From Candidatus Iainarchaeum sp. (GTDB lineage Archaea; Micrarchaeota; Micrarchaeia; Anstonellales; Bilamarchaeaceae), in NCBI GenBank assembly GCA_028686985.1, contig JAQUBA010000007.1:1-52437 (forward strand): 52,437 nucleotides of DNA. The letters are read 5' to 3'. This document shows positions 7,243 through 35,137 of the stretch, one piece after another; the stretch's first letter is position 1, and every line of letters begins with the position of its first letter. Both the position numbers and the translations under genes were made by a program. Under the pieces are notes generated by a model. It searched no databases. It was given only the letters and a program-made list of their open reading frames with translations, and was not told the DNA's origin.

Positions 7243-7317
7243 GGGCCTGTAGCTCAGCTTGGTTAGAGCGCCGGACTCTTAATCCGGGTGTCGGGGGTTC
7301 AAATCCCCTCAGGCCCG
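7243..7317 (+). tRNA. tRNA-Lys (anticodon CTT)
   Basis: A complete cloverleaf with no intron. The acceptor GGGCCTG (7243-7249) pairs with CAGGCCC (7310-7316), and the discriminator base is G. The D arm is GCTC/GAGC. The anticodon stem CCGGA/TCCGG encloses loop CTCTTAA with anticodon CTT. The T arm GGGGG-TTCAAAT-CCCCT contains one G-T pair. CCA is not encoded. The AT-rich nuclease/ATPase pair begins just downstream; no repeated copy of the tRNA 3' end was found to prove integration. Confidence 0.95.
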
Positions 7318-11174: not shown

Positions 11175-14100
11175 CTACATGAAATCGGAGAGCCCCTTCT
11201 GCTCCACCTTCTCGTCGCGGAAGACGCTGTCTATCTCCTTCTCCACGAGCTCAAGGCGCTGCTTCAGGTAGGACGGGAGCCCGTACTCGTCAATCATCCT
11301 CATGGAGACCTTGAGGTATTTCTCTATCCCGCCCTTGTTTATGGTGAGGAGGATTTTGCCCCCGCAGCGGGAGCATTTGCCTATGAGCGGGGGGCGGCGG
11401 TAGATCTCGTTGCAGTCAACGCAGCGGAAGGACTGCCGCGAGAAGGAGCGCAGGTTTCCGTAGATGTCCGGGATGAAATGGGAAAGGATGAGGCGCTCGG
11501 CCGCGTCCTTGGAATCCACCGCCCGGAGGATTGAGTGGAGGCGGAATTCCGCCTCTATCTTCTCCGGAATGGAATCCAGCTTTATGTAATTGGTGACCAT
11601 CGGGCCCTCGTTCAGCGAGGTGGTGTCAAACATGAAACGGAGGTCGCCGTACTGCTCCGGCTTCCCGAGGAGGTCCTTCACGGTGGCGAGCTTGATGTCC
11701 CCGGGGAAGGCGAGCCTCTCGCAGGCCTGGTAGAAGTCAAGGGGATATTTGCTGACCACTTCCATCCCGTGCACCTCATCATCAACCTCAAGCGGGTTTA
11801 TGACGGGCGTGAGCAGGAGCGGGGCGTCCATCGTACCTCCCCTCTTGCTTGAGAGGTAGGAGCGGGAGAAGTTCAGGAGGGCGTCCATGAGCAGCATTAC
11901 CGCATCTTCATCCCCGTCGCAATTCCTCCTTTTTGCGGTGTGGAAGTAGGGGTGGGCGTAGCCGACGTTCGCATCCGTGTATCCGATGATGCGGGCGAGG
12001 ACGCACGCGGAGGTGTGCGGGGAGAGGCCAACGACCATGTGGCCTATGAGGCCCCTCTCATTCTTGAGCTTGTAGAAGGGGTGCAGCCCATAGAGGTTCA
12101 CCAGGGTGTCGTCTATGAAATTCGCAACCCTTGCGAGGTAATCCATCCCGTGGCGCGAGACAAGGATGTCCTGGGGCATGAGCGCGACTATCTGGCTGTC
12201 CGAGGTGATGGGCTTCCCGAGATGGTCGTGCGTGTAGCCCAGGGCCTTTATGCCCTCAACGGTCTGGTTTATCTCGGAGATGCGGAAGTGCGTGATGGGG
12301 ACGTCCGTGGCGTCAAAGCGGGAGGTGCCGTCCTTGTACACATAGACGGAGTGCTTGGCGCGCAAGAAGCCCTTCTCCAGGCGCTCCGGGATGCGGGAGT
12401 CGCTGAACAGCCCCTTCACCCCCTTGAGGTCCGGGGGCATGAAGCCGAGCCCGGTGCGCACTTTCTCCATTATGGATATGAGCTCAAGCGGGCGGTAATC
12501 GTAGGCCTGGGTGGGGAGGCCGCAATGCTCCTTCTCCGGGGTCACCACGCCGCACTTGTGGCAGACCTTCTCCGGGAAGGCTGGGGCGCCGCATGAGTGG
12601 CAGCGCGTGGAAAATGTGGGCTTGCCGCAGCCGCTGCAGCGTAAGCGGGCTATCTCAACATTTATGCCCCGCTCCTTTTCCCTGCCCTTCAGGGATTTGT
12701 AGAGCTTTACGAGGCTGCGGTTCTTGGGCGAGCCCGTGGGGAAGAGGATGTTGGGGCTTCCGGGCATTATCCTCTCCTTGGCTTTTTCGGGCCTGCCCAT
12801 CCTTGCGCCCACATATGTGGGGCATTTCCGCCTTATCGTGATTCCGGAGAGGCGGCACACGTTCTCCATCACGTCCTTTTCCGCATCCATGGAAAAGGAG
12901 GACTGGTCCAGCTTCTGGCCCATGAGCAGCCCGAGGGAGGAGAGGAGGGCGAACGCGTCGTCGCCGGAAAGGGTCATGTTCTGGCCGTCGGCCCTGTGCT
13001 CAACGTAAAGGTTCTCCAGGATGTATTTTTCCTTGTCCAGCGGAAGGGTGAACTCGCGGAGGCGGTTGCCTTCCCAGGACGGCTTCCCTTTTGAGAGATA
13101 ATGGGCGAGGGAGGTGATCTCCTCGTGCGTGAGGTCGTGCCAGGGATATGTGTAGTCCGGATGGAGCGGGATGCTGCCCTTGCGTGAGAATTCAAAGGCC
13201 TCCGGGGCGCCCTGGGTTTGCGGGATGGCGAGGTCCGCGGCCTCTATCTCCGCCTCCCACCATTCCCTGCAATAGCCGGACGGCATGAGCGGGTGGTTGG
13301 ATTTGAGGAAATCCCCGAAGGTGACGAGCATGTCCCCGAGGAACAGTATCTTCTCCACGTTTGGGTGGATGGAGTGCGCCTCCTGTGCGCTCCTTACCCT
13401 CATTACGGAGCCGTTCTTCAGCCGGACGACCGGGGGCTCTATGGAGTCGCAAACGCTGACTATGCAGCCCTTGCCCGGGCGCTCAACCTTCATGTGCGTT
13501 CCGTTGGCAGGGAAGGAATCAAGGAGCACCATCGCGGCGGGATGGATGTTCCGCGCCATTATGCCGTTGGTGCGGCTCCTCCCGTAGCGGAGGCGGAAGC
13601 CGCCCTTTGCCATCGGGTAGCTGAACACCGGGCGGCCGGCGACCAGCCCTTCCAGGTACGTGAAATCCGGCTTTACCTCCACCTTGTCCTCCTTCTTCTT
13701 CACTTTTATGACGTCTTGGAGCCAGTTCCAGTCCAGGCCGTACTTGCCCGCCTGCTTGAGGACCTTGGGCGCCTTCTGCGCAATCCCCTCGCAGAGGACG
13801 AGCGGGATGCCTCCGCGCACGCGGTTGCTCTTCACGCGCTCAAGGTCGCGGTGCACGGATACTTCAACGTCTTCCGTTGGGTCGCCGTCTATGCACACCG
13901 GGCAGTTGCGGACTATGTGGGCGACGTGCTCGTCCGGGGGCTTGTACTGGAGGTGGTTGCACCGGTTCTCGTAAACATTCACCTCCTCCACGTACCGGGC
14001 TACTTCGGTCTCGGTGGGGCGGTAGTTGCCTATGCCGCACCTGCTCCTCGCGATGTCGGCGAATACCACGCTGAGCGCGGCAACGGTCCCGCCCGCAGAG

Positions 14101-17797: not shown

Positions 17798-19324
17798 ATG
17801 CAGGTTTGCCCGAAATGCGGAAGAAGGTCAAAAGGGGCGGAATTCTGCCCGCATTGCGGGACTCCCTTTGAGCACCCTATGGCGGGCGGGCAGCCCCCGG
17901 CGCAGCCGGCTCCGCAGGCACCGAAGCAGGGCGGCACCCCGCTTCTCACATACGCGCTTGCGGGGGTGCTGGTCATGGCGGCGCTGATATTCATATTCGT
18001 GCTGGGCGGCATCGGGTTCGTAGTGCTCCTGCTGCAGTCGGGCACGCCAACAACCATGCAGATTTCCGCGCCGGCGCATGCCGACGTTAATTCAACCATT
18101 CCTATAAGCGCCACGCTCATGGACAGCATGGGAAACCCCGTCCCTGGCAAGACGATAACCTTTGATTACGGCAACCATGCCACGGCAGTAACCAATTCAA
18201 ACGGAGTCGCCCGCGCGAGCATCGTGCTTAACCAGATAGGCACGTGGCAGATAGTAGCGAGGTTTGCGGGGGATACCGCCTACCTGTCTTCTCTCACGGC
18301 AAGGAACGTGAGTATCACCCCGCCTTCGTGCTACGACGGGACTGTGGTGGGCGGGTGCAATGGAAATGGATTTTATTGCAGCGAGAACAGGAGCCTCGCC
18401 TACGATTGCGCGGCGTGCGGCTGCTCGGGAAATCGGGTGTGCTATGACAATTACTGCATGAGCGACGAGGAGAGGACCGGATTCCTGATAGACGACCTGC
18501 AGGAGAGCATGGTGTACGTGGCGCACACGTACGCGACGGGCTCAGGTGTGATAATCGCACAGGACGGCACCCATACGTTCGTCCTGACAAACAGGCATGT
18601 TGTCGCGGACGCGGACAGGATTTCGGACGTGCATGTGACGCTGCGCGACCAGCAGACAATCCCCGCGAGCGACATACTTGTTGCGCCCTTTGGCATGGAC
18701 CTTGCGATAATCGCCTTGCTAGGGACGTACGGGGAGCCCGTGAGCGTCAATATATCCACTCCCATCTACCAGGGCCAGGCGGTCATGGCGCTGGGCTCTC
18801 CGCTGGGGTTGCAGGGGAGTGTATCCAACGGGATAGTCTCAAATGTCATCTATGATTATACGGACAGCGATTACAGGTACATTGCGCTGCAGACGGACGC
18901 GGCGATAAACCCGGGCAACAGCGGCGGAGGGCTGTTCCTCAAGAGCACCGGGACCCTGATAGGCATAAACACGTTCGTCCTTCCGTCTGAGTACGGGGCG
19001 GAGGGGCTGGGGTTCGCGATAGATGTGAGGTCAATAGACGAATTGCCCGCGCCGGACCAGTGGCAGGGATTTGTTCCGACGCCGAAATGCTCGGATGGAA
19101 CTCCGTACAATTCGTGCTCTGTGAACACTCCTGGCAAGTACTGCTCCGGAGGCAGATTGCGGGATGATTGCACCAGGTGCGGCTGCGCTGCGGGATATTC
19201 CTGCCCGGGCAATGGCGTATGCTTCATATGCAGGCCGGGCTATTCCGCGTGGCAGACGCCCGAGGGCAGGGGGTTCTGCTGCCCCAATGGCAGGGTGGGG
19301 TATGACGACGGCACATGCAGTTAG
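17798..19324 (+). CDS. Membrane-anchored HtrA-like serine protease with zinc ribbon and Cys-rich modules
   Basis: 508 residues with an unusual domain chain. A cytoplasmic zinc ribbon (CPKCG at 4-8, CPHCG at 17-21) and a Pro/Ala linker lead to one membrane helix (49-80). A Big/Ig-like domain (about 86-172) follows, then a Cys-rich module (178-220), a trypsin-like protease (about 235-415) and a second Cys-rich module (431-507). The catalytic triad fits His267 (LTNRHVV), Asp301 (GMDLAII) and Ser375 (NPGNSGGGL). No PDZ domain is seen; the Cys-rich C-terminus takes its place. The protease would face outside the cell, perhaps in surface protein quality control or processing. The start follows a TATA box closely. 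Confidence 0.87.
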   Translation: MQVCPKCGRRSKGAEFCPHCGTPFEHPMAGGQPPAQPAPQAPKQGGTPLLTYALAGVLVMAALIFIFVLGGIGFVVLLLQSGTPTTMQISAPAHADVNSTIPISATLMDSMGNPVPGKTITFDYGNHATAVTNSNGVARASIVLNQIGTWQIVARFAGDTAYLSSLTARNVSITPPSCYDGTVVGGCNGNGFYCSENRSLAYDCAACGCSGNRVCYDNYCMSDEERTGFLIDDLQESMVYVAHTYATGSGVIIAQDGTHTFVLTNRHVVADADRISDVHVTLRDQQTIPASDILVAPFGMDLAIIALLGTYGEPVSVNISTPIYQGQAVMALGSPLGLQGSVSNGIVSNVIYDYTDSDYRYIALQTDAAINPGNSGGGLFLKSTGTLIGINTFVLPSEYGAEGLGFAIDVRSIDELPAPDQWQGFVPTPKCSDGTPYNSCSVNTPGKYCSGGRLRDDCTRCGCAAGYSCPGNGVCFICRPGYSAWQTPEGRGFCCPNGRVGYDDGTCS

Positions 19325-21846: not shown

Positions 21847-22926
21847 ATGGACGACCTTATAAAATCTGTAGTGGGGGAATCCGCGCCAAAAGCGACGGAA
21901 TCCGAGGACATGAGCTCCGAGAGCATTAAAATCGTGACTGTCGGCGCTGGCGGTGCGGGCAACAACACCATAAACCGGCTCATAAAGACCGGGGTGAAGG
22001 GAACCGAGCTTGTCGCGGTGAACACGGACAAGCAGCACCTCAACCAGATACACGAGAGGTCAAAGAAGGTGCTCATCGGCAGGAGCATAACCAAGGGCCT
22101 GGGTGCAGGGGGCTACCCGGACGTGGGCGCCAAGGCCGCGGAAGTGGACAAGGCGCTCCTTGAGAGAGAGCTCGAGGGTGCACACCTGGTCTTCATATGC
22201 GCAGGCATGGGAGGGGGCACGGGCGGCGGCGCTGCGCCAATCATTGCGCAGATTGCGAAGGAGCAGGGCGCGATTACCGTTGCGATGGTCACCTACCCGT
22301 TCGCCCTGGAGAGGGCGAGGAGGAAGAAGGCGGACGAAAGCATCGCAAAGCTCAGGCAGCACTGCGACTCCGTGATTATAATAGACAACAACAGGCTCGT
22401 GCAGTTGGTGCCGAACCTGCCCATGACCGAGGCGTTCGCGGTTGCGGACGAGATTCTCGCGAGGGCGATCTCCGGCCTCGTCTGGACGATTACCCAGCCG
22501 TCCCTCATTAACATAGACTTCGCGGATGTGAGGTCAATCATGCAGGGCGGCGGAGTGGGCTTCATCGCGGTCGGTGAGGGCAAGGGCACGGACAAGGTCT
22601 CTGCGGCTGCGGAGGCGGTCATAAAGAACAGGCTGCTGGACGTGGACTTCGAGGGCGCGAAGGGTGCGCTCATCCACATCTCCGGAGGCTCGGACCTATC
22701 GCTCGGCGACGCGATAAAGGCTGGCGAGATAATCACCGAGAAGATGGACCCGGAGGCCAACGTGAAGTGGGGCGCCAGGATCATGCAGAACTACGATGGG
22801 AAGCTTGAGATAGTCGCCATCGTTACCGGCGTGAAGGGCGCATCCATACTCGGCTCCAACATGTCTGGGGACACCCAGGAGACCGGGTTCCCGACCTTCA
22901 GTGGCGACCTGGACATGCTCGGCTGA
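21847..22926 (+). CDS. ftsZ1: Cell division GTPase FtsZ (first copy)
   Basis: A 359-residue tubulin-like GTPase that polymerises at the division site. GTP-binding motifs are GAGGAGNNTINRL, NTDKQHL and the tubulin signature GMGGGTGGGAAP. The T7 catalytic loop NIDFADVRSIM carries the acidic residues needed for hydrolysis. The short N-terminal extension (DDLIKSVVGESA) resembles the one in the second copy. No bacterial-style C-terminal FtsA/ZipA tail is visible; the end is PTFSGDLDMLG. A terminator separates it from ftsZ2, so the two copies can be regulated independently. The ftsZ1/ftsZ2 label is by gene order only. Confidence 0.93.
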   Translation: MDDLIKSVVGESAPKATESEDMSSESIKIVTVGAGGAGNNTINRLIKTGVKGTELVAVNTDKQHLNQIHERSKKVLIGRSITKGLGAGGYPDVGAKAAEVDKALLERELEGAHLVFICAGMGGGTGGGAAPIIAQIAKEQGAITVAMVTYPFALERARRKKADESIAKLRQHCDSVIIIDNNRLVQLVPNLPMTEAFAVADEILARAISGLVWTITQPSLINIDFADVRSIMQGGGVGFIAVGEGKGTDKVSAAAEAVIKNRLLDVDFEGAKGALIHISGGSDLSLGDAIKAGEIITEKMDPEANVKWGARIMQNYDGKLEIVAIVTGVKGASILGSNMSGDTQETGFPTFSGDLDMLG

Positions 22927-22938
22927 AGTTTTGCGATT

Positions 22939-22966
22939 GGGGGGCTGCTGTCCCCCCTCTTTTTAA
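22939..22966 (+). terminator. Terminator after ftsZ1
   Basis: GGGGGG (22939-22944) and CCCCCC (22952-22957) form a stem with loop CTGCTGT, followed by repeated T-runs (CTCTTTTTAATTTTT). Confidence 0.7.
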
Positions 22967-23009
22967 TTTTTATTTTGATTTTTGCCTGATTTTCCGCGTT
23001 CCACAATTC

Positions 23010-23019
23010 ATTATAAATC
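23010..23019 (+). promoter_or_regulatory. TATA box of ftsZ2
   Basis: ATTATAAATC is about 35 bases before the ATG at 23048. A second A/T block, CCTATAAATA, lies further downstream. Confidence 0.5.
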
Positions 23020-23047
23020 TAATCCTATAAATAATGGCGGTGCTCAT

Positions 23048-24145
23048 ATGCTGGACCTCGTGAAGGATGTGGTTGGAGAAGCGAAGTCTAATCCTGTTTC
23101 CGTCCCGCAGAAGGACTTTGACCCGACGAACGTGAAGATAGCCGTCATAGGCACGGGGGGCGCGGGCTGCAACTCCGTTTCGCGGATTACGAAGCAGGGG
23201 ATAAAGAGCGCCACGACCATAGCGATAAACACCGACGCGAAGCACCTGAGGATAACCGAGGCACACAAGAAGCATGTGCTCGGTTACAACATCACGAAGG
23301 GGCTGGGCGCGGGGGGCGAGCCCTCGGTCGCGAGGAAGGCGGCGGAGGCGGACCTGGACAAGCTGCGCGCGCTCATCGGGGAGAATGAGATAGTGTTCAT
23401 ACTGGCGGGGATGGGCGGAGGCACGGGCACCGGGAGCGCGCCCATACTCGCAAGGATTGCGAAGGAGCAGGGCGCCATCGTGGTAGGCGTGGTCACCTTC
23501 CCATTCAACATAGAAAGGGTGAGGGTGAAGAAGGCGAGGGAGGGGCTCAAAGACTTCATGAAGGAGGCGGACACTGTCATAGTGATAGACAACAACAGGT
23601 TGCTGGGATACGCGCCGAACCTGCCGCTCAACAAGGCGCTGGAACTCGCGGACGAAGTGGCGGCTAGGGCGGTCCGCGGGATTGCGGACACAATCGTCTT
23701 CCCGTCGCTGATAAATGTGGATTATGCGGACGTCATGAGCGTCATGAAGAACGGCGGGCTCGCGATGATATCCATCGGCGAGGCAAACGGCTCGGACTTC
23801 GTGAAGAATGTCGTGGAAAACACGCTGAAGCACCCGCTGCTTGACGTGGATTACGAAGGGGCGCGCGGTGCGCTCATCCACATAGAGTCCGGGCAGAAGC
23901 TCACCCTTGGCGAGGCAATTGAGATAGGGGAGGGCATATCCTCAGGGTTTGACGAAGGCGCGAGCGTTAAGATGGGCGCCAGGATAAACGAGGAGTTCAT
24001 GGGCGGTGTGCGCGTGACCGCGATAGTCACGGGCGTGAAGTCGCTCAGCATATTCGGGCAGGCTGGCGGGAACGCGCAGGCGCAGGGCATGGTCGCATCC
24101 GCCGCGAGCACGCTCCAGGAAGGGATGGTTGACGAGTTCCTCTGA
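23048..24145 (+). CDS. ftsZ2: Cell division GTPase FtsZ (second copy)
   Basis: A 365-residue FtsZ. Motifs are GTGGAGCNSVSRI, NTDAKHL, GMGGGTGTGSAP and the T7 loop NVDYADVMSVM, all intact. The N-terminal LDLVKDVVGEAKSN parallels the other copy. The C-terminus has a Gly/Ala/Gln-rich linker and ends in STLQEGMVDEFL, a possible short partner-binding peptide. I chose the ATG at 23048, after GGTGCTCAT; the longer reading from 22982 runs through the promoter. Archaea with two FtsZ proteins use them for different division steps (known from haloarchaea; inferred here). Confidence 0.93.
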   Translation: MLDLVKDVVGEAKSNPVSVPQKDFDPTNVKIAVIGTGGAGCNSVSRITKQGIKSATTIAINTDAKHLRITEAHKKHVLGYNITKGLGAGGEPSVARKAAEADLDKLRALIGENEIVFILAGMGGGTGTGSAPILARIAKEQGAIVVGVVTFPFNIERVRVKKAREGLKDFMKEADTVIVIDNNRLLGYAPNLPLNKALELADEVAARAVRGIADTIVFPSLINVDYADVMSVMKNGGLAMISIGEANGSDFVKNVVENTLKHPLLDVDYEGARGALIHIESGQKLTLGEAIEIGEGISSGFDEGASVKMGARINEEFMGGVRVTAIVTGVKSLSIFGQAGGNAQAQGMVASAASTLQEGMVDEFL

Positions 24146-27284: not shown

Positions 27285-30200
27285 TTATTCGGCTGGGGTT
27301 TCCTCTGGCCATTCGTTGTAGGTGGTCCTGGACCGCCTGCCCCTCCTGGTCACGGTCCTGAGGAATTCGTGGGCTGACCTCCAGCTCGCGCTCGCCCCTT
27401 TCCATATCGCATCCCACTTGTCTGGATGCGCGTTCCAGTAGGCCTGCACAGTCTCCTCGGGCATGCCCATGAGGAATTCAACATCGTTGACTCCGGCGCC
27501 TGTTTCGGCGAACCTGGCCTCAAGGAGCGGGAGCGCCGCCTCGGTGGTCACCCACTCTATGTGGTCGCGGTCCGCAAGCTCCTCCATCTGGCTCGTGGAC
27601 GGGATTCTCCCCGCCTGCGCCGGAAGGTATGGCAGGTAAGCCAGTACCATGTCCAGAACGTTCTCTTCCCGGGTGGATTCCAGTATGGTCTGGCCGGGAT
27701 AGCGCACATTGAACTTTGCCACCAGGTACTCCGTCAGCGATTCAATGGTGGGTTGCACCCTCCCATTCTTGACCGCATCAACCACATCAAGCAGCAGGAA
27801 CACCCTCTCCGGAGAGTAATCCGGATATATGCCAAGCAGCTTGTCCACCATGCCACGCAAGGCGGGATAGCCGGAAAGGAACGCCACCATCTGCTCGTCC
27901 ACATTCCGGTCGGTAACGGAATCCAGCCCGACTCTCCTGCGGCCTGCAAAATCCGAAGCCATGCGCAGCCTGGTCATCTCTACGGAAGCCAGCTGCGTCT
28001 GGGAGCTGCCCTCAAGGAAATACGCCCTCGTTATTGGGGAAAGGTTGGGTGCAAGGTGGCCCCTGAGGTCGTTTATTGCATCCAATGTGGTGCGCCTCTC
28101 GTTGCCCGGGGTTGAGAGATATTCAAGCGCCACAGTGTAGGCATGCAGCCTCGCATCACCTTCCATATTATGGGCTATCAGGCCGGCGACGACCGCGTTC
28201 TTCTGCATGAGGTACATCTGGGCGACCCTCTCAGCGAACTGCGGGATTGCCTCCCCCGGCAGCCTCATTAAAAACGCCTGCATGAACGCCTCCATGTTCT
28301 CGCCACGGCCGGCCTCCCCAGGCGTCCTTGCGTTCACCACGTCTATCACGGGCTGCGCAAAAACCCGGAACCTTTGTATCTCAAAGAGCCTTGCGAAAAT
28401 GTCCATCTCCCGGTTCGCCGGGCTGCTCATGAGTGACTGCACCAAATCCGCATAGACGTCCCTCTGGCTGTCCGCGGGGACGAAGGCCTCTATGAGGCCG
28501 GGTACCCTGCCCGCGTTGAGCGACGGAAGCTTGAGGTATTCCCTGAAGAAGTAAATCTGCGCCGCATCCGGGTCATTGGCGTAGTTGGCGCGTATATGGT
28601 CGGTAACCCTGCTCAGGAACTCCTTTACCTCCGTGGTTGCCCGCGCCTGGCTCGCATCGGAGAAGGTTGCGAGTTGGGATGAATTTATCCCAAGAGTTGA
28701 GTGGAGATATAGGTCAACCGCAGCCCTGAGCTCGGGGTTGCTCTCCAGGAGCCTGGTGCGCGCGGTTTCCGCTGCGGTGGCGTCGGGAAGGGTGGTGGGT
28801 GTCGCCTGCTCCGCCCGCGTGCCAGTTGTGGACGGCTGCGCGGGCTGCCTTGCTTCGCTCTCTCCGGTTCCGAACGCAGTCTGATATAGGAAAGTTAGTG
28901 GGTCCCGGACATCCGTCAGGTTAGCATGGTAATCAATTGCCCATGCAATTTCAGTACAACCCAGAAGTGCAGCCCATCCGGCAAGTTTCGCTCCTCTTGT
29001 GGGGCCTGAGAACGCTTCACGCATAATGCTACTCGCCATACGCGCCGGAGCCGCAAAATATCTGGCAATGGTTACCCCTCTGGAACCTGCACCCCCGGCC
29101 ATCCTCCACGGGTCTACAAACATTCTTGCCCAAACGCTCGTGGACGGTGTGAAAGGCGCCCTGTTGATTATGGAAATATCCGCACCATTGACTTCAAGAA
29201 CGAGGATATTGTTGGCCGAACCCACACGCAAGGTCCTGTCAAGTATCCTTGTGTCTATGCCGCGCAGCACATCTATGGGGTTCCTTAAGCCCTGCTGGCC
29301 TCTGAATGCGTCCTGCATTGCAGTGCCGAAGCGACCTAGCCCCTCAGCAATCGTCAATCTATCCAACATGCCATTTATTTCAGGGTTTTGTAATTGCCGC
29401 AAAACTCTCGTAACCTCCGTGAGGTTACCTTTTTCAATCAGCTTTAACGCATCTTCAATTATTTTTGATGTATTCTCAGATAGATTTAATCCGTATTGTA
29501 AACGCAGAAGTTCACTCTTTATATCTGCCCGTAGTCCCACAGCGGTATCCAAATTCGCGCCGCCAGTGTGAATATCGTCCCTAAAACGCTCCAGAATGCC
29601 CTGCGCCCGCGTTTTTGCCTGGGTCAAGGCAGTTTCTGCAGCCTGCACCTGCTGTTGTTGGGTTGTAATTCTCTGATCTAATGCTGTGATTTCAGCTTGC
29701 TCGGCCTGGAAACCAGCCCCACGCGTGCCCGCCCTCCTCACTGCCGCAGTGTCCCTCTGGGCGGTCAGCCTGTCCAACTCCGCCTTAAGTTCATCGTATA
29801 TCTTTTGCTTCGGCTCTACCACCGCCCGCAGGACTTCGGTCCTCACGGCTGCCACCGCATTTGTGTAAGTGGAAATCCTCTGTTGGCTGAATGGGTCTAA
29901 TTCGTTTGCAATTAATGAGGATAATCCTGAGGCTAGGATTACGCTTCCCACAAAGCTCCTGACCCCGGCTATGCCTGCGGCCTGTATTTCGGGAAGGTTC
30001 GTGCCGCGGCTGGCGTATTCATTCCCGAAATTAGACTGCATGAATCCTAACGTCGCGTAGAGGGAGCGCTCCCACGCTTCCTCCATCTGGTTGGGGGTCA
30101 CCACGGACGGCATCGTGCCGCCAGCAGCGCCTATGAGCGCATTCAGCCGGTTCGAATAGTCAAGCATGAAATAGAGTGCAACCTTGTCGTCCGTGCTTAT

Positions 30201-31037
30201 GTCAGCCATGCTGAACGCATCTATCGTGCCCTCGGAAATTCCCGCTGCAAGGAGCATCTGCCTCGCTTCGGACTCGCCTATCGTGACCGTTGAGCCGTCT
30301 TCCAGCTCTACGTCAAATGTCTGCGCCGGAGACGGTACTATTGATTGAAGGGCGGATGCGAAACTGGTGCCTATCCTGGTCCAAAATCCGGGTTCTTCTG
30401 CGGCAGGCGTTTCCACCGGCGTTATCGGAGCGGCGGACGCGACCTCCCCCAGCACTCCGGTAAGCTGCTCATGGACCACCGCCTGGAGCTCGGATGTGCT
30501 GGCATTGCCATGCATGGCCTCCTCTGCGAAAAGCAGGAGCAGCCTGTCGCGCAGGTCTTCTTTCTGCGCGGCCGAAAGCGACTGGAATGCCTCCCTCTGG
30601 GAATTTATGTCGCGCTGCCTGGCGCCTTCCCCGCCCAAGAGGCTGAGGGGGCGTGCGCCCGCGGGCTGTGTGAGGTCGTCAAGCAGGCGGTTAACGTTCC
30701 TTACAACCATGTTCAGGTCATCGGTGTTGTTCAACACGGCACCATATGTTCCAGAATCAAGAATTCTCTCTGCGGCCGAGCGGTCTGCGCGGACATCTGA
30801 ACGGAAGGCTTCAACCATAGTAACACCTATATTATTGCGTGTTTCCGTATTTAAAAAGGTATCTTGAGCCGGTGCATCGGACTGGATGAGGACTGCCACC
30901 CCCAGCGCCAGGGGGGCGAGTAGCGGGCTCGCGGCTTTTATGCCGCGTATCCCGCCGGGGGAGGGGGCAAACCGGCCCTCTGCCGGCTGGGTCGCCGCCT
31001 CCGCCCTTGGGGGCTTGGGTTTTGCATCGTCAGGCAT
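27285..31037 (-). CDS. Giant orphan protein 1 (1250 residues)
   Basis: I recognise no family. The N-terminus is Pro/Ala-rich and charged, then a hydrophobic stretch at 36-52 (ASPLLAPLALGVAVLIQ) could be a signal anchor. A second hydrophobic segment lies near 360-382, and a long coiled coil follows at about 406-487 (heptad-like, Gln-rich, with ITTQQQQVQAAETALTQAK). A third hydrophobic segment is near 682-702, and a Thr/Pro/Ala-rich linker with QPAQPSTTGTRAEQATPTTLP follows it. The C-terminal 500 residues are helical repeats without a recognisable motif. Only one cysteine was noticed. I chose the ATG at 31037 because a TATA-like ACTATTTATGC at about 31081-31090 would start transcription near 31060, downstream of the longer ATG at 31073. 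It follows giant gene 2 on the same strand. Confidence 0.78.
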   Translation of the reverse strand: MPDDAKPKPPRAEAATQPAEGRFAPSPGGIRGIKAASPLLAPLALGVAVLIQSDAPAQDTFLNTETRNNIGVTMVEAFRSDVRADRSAAERILDSGTYGAVLNNTDDLNMVVRNVNRLLDDLTQPAGARPLSLLGGEGARQRDINSQREAFQSLSAAQKEDLRDRLLLLFAEEAMHGNASTSELQAVVHEQLTGVLGEVASAAPITPVETPAAEEPGFWTRIGTSFASALQSIVPSPAQTFDVELEDGSTVTIGESEARQMLLAAGISEGTIDAFSMADISTDDKVALYFMLDYSNRLNALIGAAGGTMPSVVTPNQMEEAWERSLYATLGFMQSNFGNEYASRGTNLPEIQAAGIAGVRSFVGSVILASGLSSLIANELDPFSQQRISTYTNAVAAVRTEVLRAVVEPKQKIYDELKAELDRLTAQRDTAAVRRAGTRGAGFQAEQAEITALDQRITTQQQQVQAAETALTQAKTRAQGILERFRDDIHTGGANLDTAVGLRADIKSELLRLQYGLNLSENTSKIIEDALKLIEKGNLTEVTRVLRQLQNPEINGMLDRLTIAEGLGRFGTAMQDAFRGQQGLRNPIDVLRGIDTRILDRTLRVGSANNILVLEVNGADISIINRAPFTPSTSVWARMFVDPWRMAGGAGSRGVTIARYFAAPARMASSIMREAFSGPTRGAKLAGWAALLGCTEIAWAIDYHANLTDVRDPLTFLYQTAFGTGESEARQPAQPSTTGTRAEQATPTTLPDATAAETARTRLLESNPELRAAVDLYLHSTLGINSSQLATFSDASQARATTEVKEFLSRVTDHIRANYANDPDAAQIYFFREYLKLPSLNAGRVPGLIEAFVPADSQRDVYADLVQSLMSSPANREMDIFARLFEIQRFRVFAQPVIDVVNARTPGEAGRGENMEAFMQAFLMRLPGEAIPQFAERVAQMYLMQKNAVVAGLIAHNMEGDARLHAYTVALEYLSTPGNERRTTLDAINDLRGHLAPNLSPITRAYFLEGSSQTQLASVEMTRLRMASDFAGRRRVGLDSVTDRNVDEQMVAFLSGYPALRGMVDKLLGIYPDYSPERVFLLLDVVDAVKNGRVQPTIESLTEYLVAKFNVRYPGQTILESTREENVLDMVLAYLPYLPAQAGRIPSTSQMEELADRDHIEWVTTEAALPLLEARFAETGAGVNDVEFLMGMPEETVQAYWNAHPDKWDAIWKGASASWRSAHEFLRTVTRRGRRSRTTYNEWPEETPAE

Positions 31038-31117
31038 CGTATCACGTCTACTAAACTGTTTGAATGTGTACATAATTTTGCATAAATAGTTTTAAAATAA
31101 GAGCAGTGGGGCGGGGA

Positions 31118-34100
31118 TTACTGCCCCTCCCCCAAATATTCCTCAACCTCGCCGGGGTAATACACGTTCCAGGGGAACCGCAGGTCGGACTGGCCCATGC
31201 TGAACCATAGGTTTACTATTGCCTGGGCGCGCTCGGCAGGGTCGTCGGGCATGGAAACCGTTGTTGCAAAGAGGTCGTTGGAAAACATCGTGTAAATCAT
31301 CTCAGCGCTCCAGTATTGTATCTGGTCGGGCCGGCAGCAGGAGAGGATTTGCACGCAAGCCCACATGACCCAGTCCAGCCCCTTGTCGTTTGCGAGGGCA
31401 TATGAAGCGGCGGCGGATATCACGCGGGAGGCCTGGGGATTATCTACGGGGTTGAAGTCCACCTCAAGCGAATCCGGGGTTAACTCCTCTAGCACACGCA
31501 ACAGCTTGTACGCGTTTTCCACCTTGTCCGTGCTGTCGCTGCCCGCATAGTATTCCTCCAGGAAGAAAAAGTCGCTGACACCCATCCCGCTGAGGTCCAT
31601 GCCTGCGTCCCTGAGTTCCTTGAGGCGGCTCGCGAAATTGAAGAGGGGGGTGCGGTAATCCCCTATTGCGAGCGGGTTGTCAAGCCGGCCATGGGACGCG
31701 AGAGAAAGGAAGACCGCGGCAATTATCTTTATCCTGTCCGCCTCATCGGGAAACGAATCCTTGAAGAAAGACCAGCTGGTGCCGTCCGGAGAACTCCCGC
31801 CATTGACTTCGCGGAGCAGCTCCGCCATTGTTATGGAGAAATTGGAGATGACATCAGGGCGGAAACTGCGCCGCCACATGTCCGGATAGGCGCCCGCAGC
31901 CAATGCGTCCATGAAGAAAAGCGAACCGCTGTCCAGCGAATTGAGGACGTCAAGAACCCTGCCTTGCGCCTCGTTTATCTCCCTGGCGGCAGGAAGGCGG
32001 TCGTTTATGGAATATGCGACTGCGCCTACGACGATTGCGCCCACCGCCGCAGTCCTGCCCGCGGCGAATAGGTCCCGGAGCTGTTCGGTTTTCTCAAGCC
32101 GGGTTACGAGCTGGATGGCACGCGCCTCGGAAACAGGAGTGGTGGAGGTCAGTATCCCTACGTCATCCCACACGACGGCAAGCTCGCGGTTTATCTCCTG
32201 CATCGCGCCCCTTGCCGCTTCTATATCCGCAGGATGAGTCAGATGCAACTCGGCAAGGAGGGCTTCCTCGGACTGCCTCTGTGCCGGCGCGGTAAGCGCA
32301 TACCTGCGCAGGCTCATCGCCGCCTGCGGGTCAAGGTAGATGCTCCTTCTGGCGATTTGCTCCGCGGTTTCAGATGCGCCTATCCTGGCTGCTGTGCGGG
32401 TGAGCAGCGGGTCCTGGGCCGGGACGAGCTGGGAGACTTCAATGGTCTGGCGTGCGCTTCCCCTCCCCAGGACAAGCCCGATGCCTTCCATGGTGCCGCT
32501 CAAAACGATTGACATTACGGGCAGCGCATTCCCTGCTGAGGCATAGGAAGAGCTGATGTATTCCCTCAGCGCGTCTATGCCGCCCTCCGCGTATATGGAA
32601 GATGCGATTGGGATTGTGAGCCACATGTTCCTCAATGCCTGGAAGCCTGCATGCATGCCGTAAAAGGAAAGGAAACCATGGGGGGCGTATCCCACCGAAG
32701 CCCAATTAAGCACCGTTTCGCCCACCGCGCCGAAGCTCACCTCCCCCAAGCCCGCTGCGGTTGCTGCGGAGAGGGTGCCGGAAGCCGCGCTTGCTGCATC
32801 GCGGAAGCGCATTATCCCGCTGACGCTCTTTACGAAAAGGGCGCCGCCTGTGGCAAAAACTACGGAATCAAAAACCGCTTCCCATGTGCTGCCGCGCTGG
32901 ATGTCCTCGTATACACGCGCGCCTGCGGCCGTGGTGCCGAGCCCTGCGGCGCTTGCAGCGAAAACCCTGCTGCCCAGGGATTCCGGGACAAAGCCGGCAC
33001 CTCTGCGCATAAGAAGGAAGAGCCCGGCAATTTTCAGGTCCTCATAAACTTCGTCGCTCCTCTCACCGGCGAAATATCTCATCGCATTGATCCAAACGGG
33101 CGTGCCTATGATTGCGGTCGCGGTGGTTGCCTGGCGGTATGCTATTGCCAGAGTTTGCGCATAAGAGGTGGAGGCAAGCTCGGCCAAAGCTGAGCGGACT
33201 GCACCGCGCTCGGCAACGCCAAGCGCAAGGTCAAGGCCCAGTGTAACCCCCCGCGCCACCGTGCCGATGCCCAGGGTTGCCACCGAAGCCCAGAATATGA
33301 AATCCGCCGCCCCGTATTTCATGAAGTATTTGGAAAATGAGTATGCCTTGTCCCAGAAGTCGCCGTTCCTGAACCTCTCCTGGAGGTTCCAGTCGTACTG
33401 CTGGCTTGCGAACTGCTCCACCGCCTCCTCCACGTTGTCAAAGCTGGATGCCAGGCCGGAGAGGTATTCCGAAAGGGGGCCGAACAGCATGGCATTCTCG
33501 TCAGGCTGCGCTATGTGCTCGTCCGGCGGCTGCAGTGCAGGTACGCCCCCCTCTATTGGCAAGAACGTATCCTCAAGCTGCTGGGTGGAATAAAGGGTTT
33601 GCAGGCCCCTTGCCTGCAGCTCTTTCACGAGTGTGTGCCTGATAAATTCGCCGTATGCCTGCAGCCTCCCCCCGAGGCTTGGCAATTCGGCGTAGTATTG
33701 TTCCCTGTTGGCGATAAAACGCTTCACCGCTTCGGAGTCTATTGAGGATGGAAGCCCCCCGTATGTTGCCATCTCCAGGAGGATAGTGTCGTTGGGCGGC
33801 GAGCCCTGCATGCGGCGGTACTCGTTTGCCTTCTGGTACTCTATGTAGTCTTTCAGGATGGAGTTGAACCTCGCCTTCGCTTCAAAGAGCGAGAGGACGC
33901 CGGCAAGCGAGAGATATTCCCCAAGAATGTTCGAAATATTCGGATCCAGGGCAGGCAGTTCCCTGCCCTCAAATCTGGAGCCGGGCGGCATCCCGACCAT
34001 CGCCGCGGCTATCGCGAGCCGCTGGCCTTCCTCCATGCCTGCGAGCGTGTCCCTGAGCTGCGAATACCGTTCCATCACCGAATCAAAAAGGCTCCTTTCA

Positions 34101-35098
34101 ATATCCTGGAACTCCATCGGGTGCGTGGAGGGCGACAACTCGGGCGGCAGCGTGCCGCTGGGGGTAGGCTGGAATTCCCTCGCCACATCCGCCCTGAGGG
34201 AATCAACGTCCACCGCGGACTCGCCCATGCCGGCCATGTAGCGGGAAATCCCGCGCACTGCGCCATGGTAGGCATCCTGAGCCGCGGAGAACGAAGAATA
34301 GGCGGATTCCACAAGGGCGGCGCGATTGGCCGAATTGTCAACAATTCCACGTAGGCAAGCCATAAGGCGGTTCTGTGTATTTTCGGATGCTTCAAAGAAT
34401 GCGGAGAGGGCGTCCGACACGCCGCCCTGCCCGGAAAAGTTGCTGGCCATCGCGAGGCAGGTCTGGTTGACGGTGGTCTTCAGGAAATCATACACGTAGA
34501 AGAAAGCTGCCATTGAATCGAAATCAAGGCTTTGCGCTGCCAGGAGCATCGCGCTCATTTGCTCCCGCTGCCCATTGGAGAAGTTGGTGTACCAGTTGTT
34601 CTGGAGGGTAACACTTCCATCCGCTTCGGTGAGTTCAAGCGGGGAAATGTCGTAAATCTGGCCAAAGTACTGTATCACGAGCTTGATTTTTTCAATCGCT
34701 TCGCGCTGGTGCGCCGCAATCCGCGCATCCTCGCTTATCCGTATGTTGATTAGCGGGAGCCTGCCGCCCACAAACTGGAGGATGTCTTCTGGAACCGGCC
34801 CACCCGTGTATGCCAGGTCGGAGTTTATTATTGCGCCCAAGTCGAACATTTCGGAGCGGGGCACCTGGAATCCTGCCTCCGCCATGTCCCCTCCTGAAAC
34901 GCTCAAACCGAAGGAGAGCGCGGTGCGCTCCACCGAAATCGCATCTATCATGCCCTGGCGCCTTTCCTCCGTTTCCGCAGTAGTGGGCGGGGGCCTTTCT
35001 GTGGGTGCGCGGACGATGGTGCTGCCTGTCATATAGTCGTATTCATCGGAAACATGTGCGGAAGGATGTTCCTCCTTCTGCCTGACCCTTTGGCTCAT
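31118..35098 (-). CDS. Giant orphan protein 2 (1326 residues)
   Basis: I recognise no family. The N-terminus is polar with a Pro-rich stretch (RAPTERPPPTTAETEER) and has no signal peptide. Helical, Ala/Ser/Leu-rich sequence fills most of the protein. Hydrophobic segments cluster at about 589-640 (FIFWASVATLGIGTVARGVTL), 645-675, 705-755 (VVFATGGALFVKSV) and 1018-1035 (AAVGAIVVGAVAYSI), so it could span or insert into membrane. The start follows GGTGCAGCA, with a TATA box 35128-35137. It lies 80 bases upstream of giant gene 1, which has its own TATA element. Similar composition, size and helix patterns suggest distant paralogy, not shown here. Its length exceeds every other gene in the window. 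Confidence 0.78.
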   Translation of the reverse strand: MSQRVRQKEEHPSAHVSDEYDYMTGSTIVRAPTERPPPTTAETEERRQGMIDAISVERTALSFGLSVSGGDMAEAGFQVPRSEMFDLGAIINSDLAYTGGPVPEDILQFVGGRLPLINIRISEDARIAAHQREAIEKIKLVIQYFGQIYDISPLELTEADGSVTLQNNWYTNFSNGQREQMSAMLLAAQSLDFDSMAAFFYVYDFLKTTVNQTCLAMASNFSGQGGVSDALSAFFEASENTQNRLMACLRGIVDNSANRAALVESAYSSFSAAQDAYHGAVRGISRYMAGMGESAVDVDSLRADVAREFQPTPSGTLPPELSPSTHPMEFQDIERSLFDSVMERYSQLRDTLAGMEEGQRLAIAAAMVGMPPGSRFEGRELPALDPNISNILGEYLSLAGVLSLFEAKARFNSILKDYIEYQKANEYRRMQGSPPNDTILLEMATYGGLPSSIDSEAVKRFIANREQYYAELPSLGGRLQAYGEFIRHTLVKELQARGLQTLYSTQQLEDTFLPIEGGVPALQPPDEHIAQPDENAMLFGPLSEYLSGLASSFDNVEEAVEQFASQQYDWNLQERFRNGDFWDKAYSFSKYFMKYGAADFIFWASVATLGIGTVARGVTLGLDLALGVAERGAVRSALAELASTSYAQTLAIAYRQATTATAIIGTPVWINAMRYFAGERSDEVYEDLKIAGLFLLMRRGAGFVPESLGSRVFAASAAGLGTTAAGARVYEDIQRGSTWEAVFDSVVFATGGALFVKSVSGIMRFRDAASAASGTLSAATAAGLGEVSFGAVGETVLNWASVGYAPHGFLSFYGMHAGFQALRNMWLTIPIASSIYAEGGIDALREYISSSYASAGNALPVMSIVLSGTMEGIGLVLGRGSARQTIEVSQLVPAQDPLLTRTAARIGASETAEQIARRSIYLDPQAAMSLRRYALTAPAQRQSEEALLAELHLTHPADIEAARGAMQEINRELAVVWDDVGILTSTTPVSEARAIQLVTRLEKTEQLRDLFAAGRTAAVGAIVVGAVAYSINDRLPAAREINEAQGRVLDVLNSLDSGSLFFMDALAAGAYPDMWRRSFRPDVISNFSITMAELLREVNGGSSPDGTSWSFFKDSFPDEADRIKIIAAVFLSLASHGRLDNPLAIGDYRTPLFNFASRLKELRDAGMDLSGMGVSDFFFLEEYYAGSDSTDKVENAYKLLRVLEELTPDSLEVDFNPVDNPQASRVISAAASYALANDKGLDWVMWACVQILSCCRPDQIQYWSAEMIYTMFSNDLFATTVSMPDDPAERAQAIVNLWFSMGQSDLRFPWNVYYPGEVEEYLGEGQ

Positions 35099-35127: not shown

Positions 35128-35137
35128 ATTTATAAAC
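35128..35137 (-). promoter_or_regulatory. TATA box of giant gene 2
   Basis: On the minus strand GTTTATAAAT is a close match to the archaeal consensus, about 30 bases before the ATG at 35098. Confidence 0.55.

What the first reader, a model, noticed from the sequence alone, without database searches (positions are those of the whole stretch)
27285..35098. Tandem pair of giant orphan genes (1250 and 1326 codons)
Nearly 8 kb, 15 percent of the window, encodes two unrecognised, helix-rich, cysteine-poor proteins with hydrophobic segments, each with its own TATA box, between aglB and ino1. A compact genome does not keep such length without use. Candidates are a surface or cell-contact apparatus, or membrane-scaffold proteins. 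Both share a patch resembling KVALYFMLDYSNRL / MAAFFYVYDFLKTT, a faint sign of paralogy.
Basis: partly seen in the sequence, partly recalled or inferred. Interest (0 to 1): 0.8.

Follow-up and report, generated by a model that had tools for sequence, protein, structure and literature searches.

The report
Hypervariable giant membrane-protein gene pair
Two very long neighbouring genes in a small, probably symbiotic archaeon encode unrelated all-helical membrane proteins that stay together as a pair but have been swapped wholesale or partly rewritten between close relatives while the genes on either side stayed almost unchanged, which is how parts facing a partner cell, rival or virus usually evolve.

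Summary
In detail: two long minus-strand genes (A, 31118-35098, 1326 aa; B, 27285-31037, 1250 aa) lie between aglB and ino1, cysteine-poor, each behind a TATA-like box. Paralogy fails: the shared patch is below chance and profile comparison is empty. A has relatives in 14 of 301 genomes of the phylum, all in one family (5 of 13 genera); a TM-bearing B-slot gene follows A in nearly all. Neither matches Pfam, NCBIfam, PHROGs or PDB beyond noise, apart from DUF6861 over two distant A relatives.

The new result is how the pair evolves. In sister species G003/G001, ino1, rnhB and aglB are 95, 96 and 83% identical, yet A is 24% identical (no BLAST hit) and B has no similarity; DNA homology ends 14 nt before A's start and resumes at the aglB stop: the whole cassette was exchanged, its promoter kept. 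Between the window and G004, A is 87% identical but B residues ~421-1237 lost DNA homology. A and aglB trees conflict (AU p about 2e-4 or less). B's main TM looks N-in/C-out, putting the variable part outside.

Best reading: a membrane-anchored, surface-exposed contact or recognition pair diversified by cassette exchange. Exchange is well supported; function is inferred.

The parts
31118..35098 (-). Gene A, 1326 aa, pI 4.65; N-terminal ~570 aa acidic region, central small-residue-rich hydrophobic region, C-terminal ~280 aa acidic region
31961..33388 (-). Conserved hydrophobic core of A (residues 571-1046), the only part detectable across five genera; alignment-averaged hydrophobic stretches near residues 592-634, 649-673, 712-730, 738-763, 858-879, 1008-1028
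27285..31037 (-). Gene B, 1250 aa, pI 5.05, one Cys; start at MPDDA
29773..31037 (-). B residues 1 to ~421: DNA homologous (82%) to the closest relative, synonymous divergence as in A and aglB
27327..29772 (-). B residues ~421-1237: replaced or hypervariable segment; DNA homology to the closest relative lost except one 182-bp piece at 73%
28929..28985 (-). B residues ~685-703: hydrophobic segment, predicted TM, N-flank +2, C-flank -2 (N-in/C-out), followed by an S/T/P-richer stretch (29% against 18% overall)
30882..30940 (-). B residues ~33-52: N-terminal hydrophobic segment (signal-anchor-like)
31051..31073 (-). 23-nt leader ATGTACACWTTCNAACARTTTAG upstream of B, one copy per genome in the four species with this type of B
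35128..35136 (-). TATA-like box (TTTATAAAT) upstream of A; this promoter region is kept even where the cassette behind it was exchanged

Best explanation
A and B are two unrelated, membrane-associated proteins encoded as an adjacent pair. A is anchored in or inserts into the cell membrane through its conserved central hydrophobic region; B crosses the membrane and carries a long C-terminal part outside the cell. Together they form an envelope structure that meets something variable outside: a host or partner cell, a competitor, or a virus. Selection from that partner drives exchange: recombination through the conserved flanking genes swaps the whole A+B cassette (or the outer part of B alone) for a divergent version, while promoter and neighbours stay. 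Shown: reality of the genes, the pairing, single copy, restriction to one archaeal family among the genomes searched, purifying selection on A between closest relatives, cassette exchange at a fixed slot, tree conflict. Inferred: membrane topology, helical folds, that A and B act together, surface exposure, and the nature of the partner.
For: Pairing: A is followed by a TM-bearing B-slot gene in all 5 same-genus genomes, in the 5 g8 genomes whose contig reaches it, and in G016 and G008; G014 has A only, with no large B gene seen. Exchange 1: G003/G001 are sisters (aglB 83%, ino1 95%, rnhB 96%) but A is 24% identical with no BLASTP hit and B is without similarity; DNA homology stops at L042:7275, 14 nt before A's ATG, and resumes at 14039 at the aglB stop. 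Exchange 2: window/G004 A 87%; B falls from about 75% to 24-38%, codon identity at unchanged residues from about 0.67 to 0.35 near residue 410-425, DNA homology absent for window 27327-29772 apart from one piece. Another genus: G028/G026 CysRS 86% but A 33%, B 36%; G011/G028 DP2 86%, A 61%, B 43%. Trees: A rejects the aglB groupings (p-AU 7e-5, 1e-4), aglB rejects the A groupings (4e-6, 2e-4). Topology: N-flank of B's main TM more positive than the C-flank in 11 of 12 (G023 only by one charge; G020 opposite). Not recently mobile or viral: GC 0.58 against 0.565, no viral-contig hit, no tRNA near.
Against: No structure: AlphaFold with two sequences gave mean pLDDT 31.8 and 43.5, unusable. No adhesion, enzymatic or secretion domain was found, no P-loop, no HExxH. 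N-glycosylation sequons are not enriched. In the window's genus B has an N-terminal hydrophobic segment as well, which makes the orientation of the main TM ambiguous; hydrophobicity of A's segments is modest. Fast-evolving cytoplasmic proteins, for example anti-viral ones, would give the same exchange pattern. The genomes are draft MAGs; mis-joined contigs could mimic an exchange, although the junctions lie inside contigs with matching flanks on both sides for G001 and for window/G004.
Confidence: 0.5

Rival explanations
1. Antagonism or predation apparatus: A is a membrane-inserting protein that acts on neighbouring cells (its small-residue-rich hydrophobic core behaving like the glycine-zipper regions of bacterial contact toxins), B is its carrier or surface anchor; diversity comes from an arms race with rivals or hosts.
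For: Cassette exchange at a fixed slot is typical of polymorphic antagonism loci (general knowledge); DUF6861 matches the A core in G008 (40-44.8 bits) and G016 (28 bits) over its cut-off; glycine-zipper segments drive effector translocation (PMC10240207) and occur in the two-protein Cdz contact-killing system (PMC5380434).
Against: GxxxG motifs in the window's A core do not exceed composition (4 against 4.2 expected; only G008, G001 and marginally G020 exceed it). No toxin domain, immunity-like gene or secretion system seen; the DUF6861 match may reflect glycine-rich composition. A is under purifying selection along its whole length, with no short variable tip.
Confidence: 0.17
2. Scaffold or structural envelope proteins (membrane organisation, cell shape or division, given ftsZ-ftsZ-aglB upstream) whose sequence turns over rapidly without an outside partner.
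For: Very long proteins without catalytic motifs; ftsZ, ftsZ, aglB on one side and inositol-lipid genes on the other.
Against: Divergence between the sister species is far too small for drift to erase similarity, and the sharp DNA edges require replacement; the pair sits beside DP1-DP2/CysRS in g8 and elsewhere in g5, g11 and g13, so the division neighbourhood is not conserved.
Confidence: 0.15
3. Intracellular or membrane-bound anti-viral defence pair diversified by virus pressure.
For: Cassette exchange, restricted distribution within one family, two-gene layout.
Against: No PADLOC match; no nuclease, ATPase or other sensor or effector domain; present in every genome of g1 and g8, unlike the usual patchiness of defence genes.
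Confidence: 0.1
4. Remnant or domesticated virus genes, for example tape-measure-like proteins.
For: Long proteins with central hydrophobic segments resemble phage tape-measure proteins in outline; a PG_binding_1 protein lies two genes downstream in G016.
Against: PHROGs gives only coiled-coil noise; no relatives in viral contigs; no virion genes nearby; host-like GC; stable slot within each genus.
Confidence: 0.05

Closest known systems
Giant 'SPEARE' surface proteins of nanohaloarchaea (PMC10266531)
   Same: Giant, presumably membrane-anchored proteins of small symbiotic archaea, variable between relatives, proposed host contact
   Different: SPEARE proteins carry a Sec signal, Ig/fibronectin-like domains and a VirB4/TraG-like ATPase and are about 9000 aa; A and B show none of these domains and are about 7-fold shorter
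DUF6861 (PF21724)
   Same: Matches the glycine-rich part of the A core in two distant relatives (G008, G016) over its cut-off
   Different: Window A does not match; only 60-88 of 194 positions over a glycine-rich stretch; homology to the window's A unproven
Cdz contact-dependent killing proteins of Caulobacter (PMC5380434)
   Same: Two-gene, surface-associated, small-residue-rich proteins (analogy only)
   Different: Cdz proteins are bacteriocin-like, exported by a type I system and paired with an immunity gene; none seen here; no sequence relation found or claimed
Tde1-type glycine-zipper effectors of type VI secretion (PMC10240207)
   Same: Glycine-rich hydrophobic segment thought to enter membranes (analogy only)
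   Different: No secretion system or toxin domain; GxxxG not above composition in the window

Membership tests
SPEARE-like giant DPANN surface proteins | Ig-like/fibronectin adhesion domains | tested here: not met
   No Pfam or NCBIfam match
SPEARE-like giant DPANN surface proteins | VirB4/TraG-like ATPase domain with P-loop | tested here: not met
   No profile match; no G....GK[ST] in 24 sequences
SPEARE-like giant DPANN surface proteins | Surface exposure | not testable with these tools
   Only topology prediction
DUF6861 (PF21724) | Score above the curated cut-off | tested here: not met
   Window A no match; relatives G008 (40-44.8 bits) and G016 (28 bits) match
Glycine-zipper toxins or effectors | GxxxG repeats beyond composition | tested here: not met
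   4 observed, 4.2 expected in the window core, p 0.62
Polymorphic toxin-immunity loci | Short variable toxic domain with adjacent immunity gene | tested here: not met
   B or the whole pair varies; only 68 bp separate B from aglB, so no small gene there
Phage tape-measure or tail module | PHROGs match and neighbouring virion genes | tested here: not met
Anti-phage defence systems | Match to a defence model | tested here: not met
A and B as paralogs of each other | Detectable sequence relation between A and B | tested here: not met
   hhalign probability under 1.5% in all A-B pairings; shared patch below chance

The most novel reading that the evidence does not exclude
A previously undescribed two-component cell-contact machine of an archaeal family with small genomes, built from two giant membrane proteins without known relatives, whose partner specificity is reset by recombinational exchange of the entire two-gene cassette behind a conserved promoter: the archaeal equivalent of a host-range or antigen cassette.
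Probability: 0.35. Interest if true: 0.85.

Novelty: new variant of a known kind. Interest (0 to 1): 0.62.

Why it matters
How DPANN-type archaea recognise and hold their partners is largely unknown. A single-copy locus that takes about 0.9% of the genome, is present in every sampled genome of its genus, yet is exchanged wholesale between sister species, singles out the proteins most likely to touch a changing partner, and gives ready-made natural allele swaps for testing partner specificity.

Tried and rejected
Paralogy of A and B (BLASTP, patch score against shuffles, profile-profile; an earlier run with the wrong global option was discarded). Homology of B across genera: only a weak profile signal between G001 and g8 (probability 30%), so 'B' outside the four window-type species names a slot, not a proven family. 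Glycine-zipper enrichment: not above composition. N-glycosylation sequon enrichment as a sign of surface exposure: none. Internal repeats: the self-BLAST was uninformative (off-diagonal matches are suppressed by the full self match) and a motif scan found only one or two similar stretches per protein. Virus or plasmid origin: no support. Functional link to aglB from adjacency: not upheld outside the genus. RNA structure in the B leader: none. I first read A's conservation between the window and G004 as plain housekeeping behaviour; the G001/G003 comparison overturned that.

Full report
What is there. The window holds two long minus-strand genes between aglB and ino1. Gene A (31118-35098) encodes 1326 aa, gene B (27285-31037) 1250 aa. 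Both proteins are acidic (pI 4.65 and 5.05), alanine-rich and nearly free of cysteine and lysine. TATA-like boxes precede both, and a TATA-like box lies between A and B in nearly all twelve genomes compared. The contig belongs to an 844-kb, 85%-complete genome.

They are genes, and they are not paralogs. Between the window and G004, A is 87% identical with pN/pS 0.155, similar to aglB (0.19). The shared patch that suggested paralogy scores 14 where shuffled sequence gives a best 14-mer of 34.6 on average, and profile-profile comparisons of A with B stay below 1.5% probability in every genus.

Distribution. A profile of the A core finds 14 of 301 genomes of the phylum, all in one family: all 5 of the window's genus (g1), all 6 of genus g8, and one each of three further genera; the 17 genomes of the large genus g12 and others lack it even at E up to 1. 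On an aglB tree the carriers need two changes, for example one gain at the base of the family and a loss. A TM-bearing B-slot gene follows A in all same-genus genomes, in the g8 genomes whose contig reaches it, and in G016 and G008; G014 has an A-like gene alone. The neighbourhood differs by genus: aglB and ino1 in g1; DP1-DP2 and CysRS in g8, with aglB about 7 kb off; a NurA-like gene (my reading of the sequence) in g5 and g13; RNA polymerase and MCM genes in g11. In the window DP2 and DP1 lie 11-16 kb beyond the pair, so g1 and g8 probably share a rearranged ancestral neighbourhood. In G016 and G008 the run of genes continues, in G016 with a PG_binding_1 protein (2.5e-5).

No known family. 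Pfam, NCBIfam, PHROGs, PADLOC and PDB give only coiled-coil or chance matches. The one exception is DUF6861 over the glycine-rich part of the core in G008 and G016; window A does not match, and its GxxxG count equals what composition gives. Structure prediction was limited to the window plus one named relative and failed (pLDDT 31.8, 43.5); the models are all-helical but cannot be used further.

The main finding: cassette exchange. G003 and G001 are sisters on aglB (100/99 support) and their flanking genes are 83% (aglB), 95% (ino1) and 96% (rnhB) identical, but A is only 24% identical with no BLASTP hit and the B genes have no similarity. BLASTN between the two loci is continuous at 86.5% through rnhB and ino1, continues at 78% through the shared promoter with its TATA box, ends at L042:7275 (A starts at 7289), and resumes at 14039, at the aglB stop codon (14036), at 80%. 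The whole 6.7-kb pair is therefore different between the sisters while its promoter is kept. Divergence at this distance is far too small for drift to erase similarity, so replacement is required. A second, partial event separates the window from G004: DNA homology is 82% through A and the first ~421 codons of B, is absent for B residues ~421-1237 apart from one 182-bp piece at 73%, and returns at the 3' end of B; codon identity at unchanged residues falls from about 0.67 to about 0.35 at the same point. Trees agree: A rejects the G003+G001 and window+G004+G002 groupings (p-AU 7e-5, 1e-4), and aglB rejects the groupings seen in A (4e-6, 2e-4). One caution: the A tree has a long G001 branch, and A still groups the genus together, so the donors were probably relatives within the same lineage. 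Genus g8 shows the same contrast: G028/G026 CysRS 86%, A 33%, B 36%; G011/G028 DP2 86%, A 61%, B 43%.

How it may work. Averaged hydropathy shows several modest hydrophobic stretches in A residues 592-763 plus two further on, flanked by acidic regions. B-slot proteins share an outline: N-terminal part, one hydrophobic segment, a polar or S/T/P-richer stretch, C-terminal part. The N-side flank of that segment is the more positive in 11 of 12 (G020 is opposite, G023 differs by one charge), which predicts N-in/C-out. In the window the C-terminal side is part of what was replaced. I conclude, with about 50% confidence, that A and B form a membrane-anchored pair with the variable part of B outside, meeting a changing partner. 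The exchange itself I hold at about 90%. An antagonism apparatus, a structural scaffold and a defence pair remain possible.

Limits. All genomes are draft MAGs; the G003 cassette is split over two contigs, whereas G001, window and G004 are each continuous over the relevant junctions. The functional reading rests on evolutionary pattern and topology prediction only.

Noticed in passing
window 31051-31073 (-): 23-nt leader ATGTACACWTTCNAACARTTTAG before B, exactly one copy per genome in four species whose B proteins share as little as 27% identity, absent from G001; no RNA fold; reads MYTF[KQE]QF[SR] as a possible upstream ORF in different frames relative to B.
   Followed up: partly
L044:11104-12759: Downstream of A and B in G016: a 346-aa ORF with a PG_binding_1 domain (2.5e-5), then a protein whose N-terminus (NPFLLNTFNSQIPMVDAMPAA after a hydrophobic segment) resembles the region after B's first hydrophobic segment.
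   Followed up: partly
window 17798-19324 (+): Trypsin-like protease (Trypsin_2 2e-23) with a bacterial Ig-like domain, possibly exported.
   Followed up: no
window 21847-24145 (+): Two adjacent ftsZ genes directly upstream of aglB; an ftsZ upstream of aglB recurs across several genera of the family.
   Followed up: no
L045:13294-18165 (-): DP2 of G023 holds what looks like an in-frame intein, and the G030 DP2 ORF is likewise about 480 aa longer than its relatives.
   Followed up: no
L021:13945-16692 (+): G011 B carries near-identical tandem ~70-80-aa repeats (SNLQAVYKPEHLDSVFKIILPKLKPGM) that a relative has once, suggesting repeat expansion in the C-terminal part of B.
   Followed up: no
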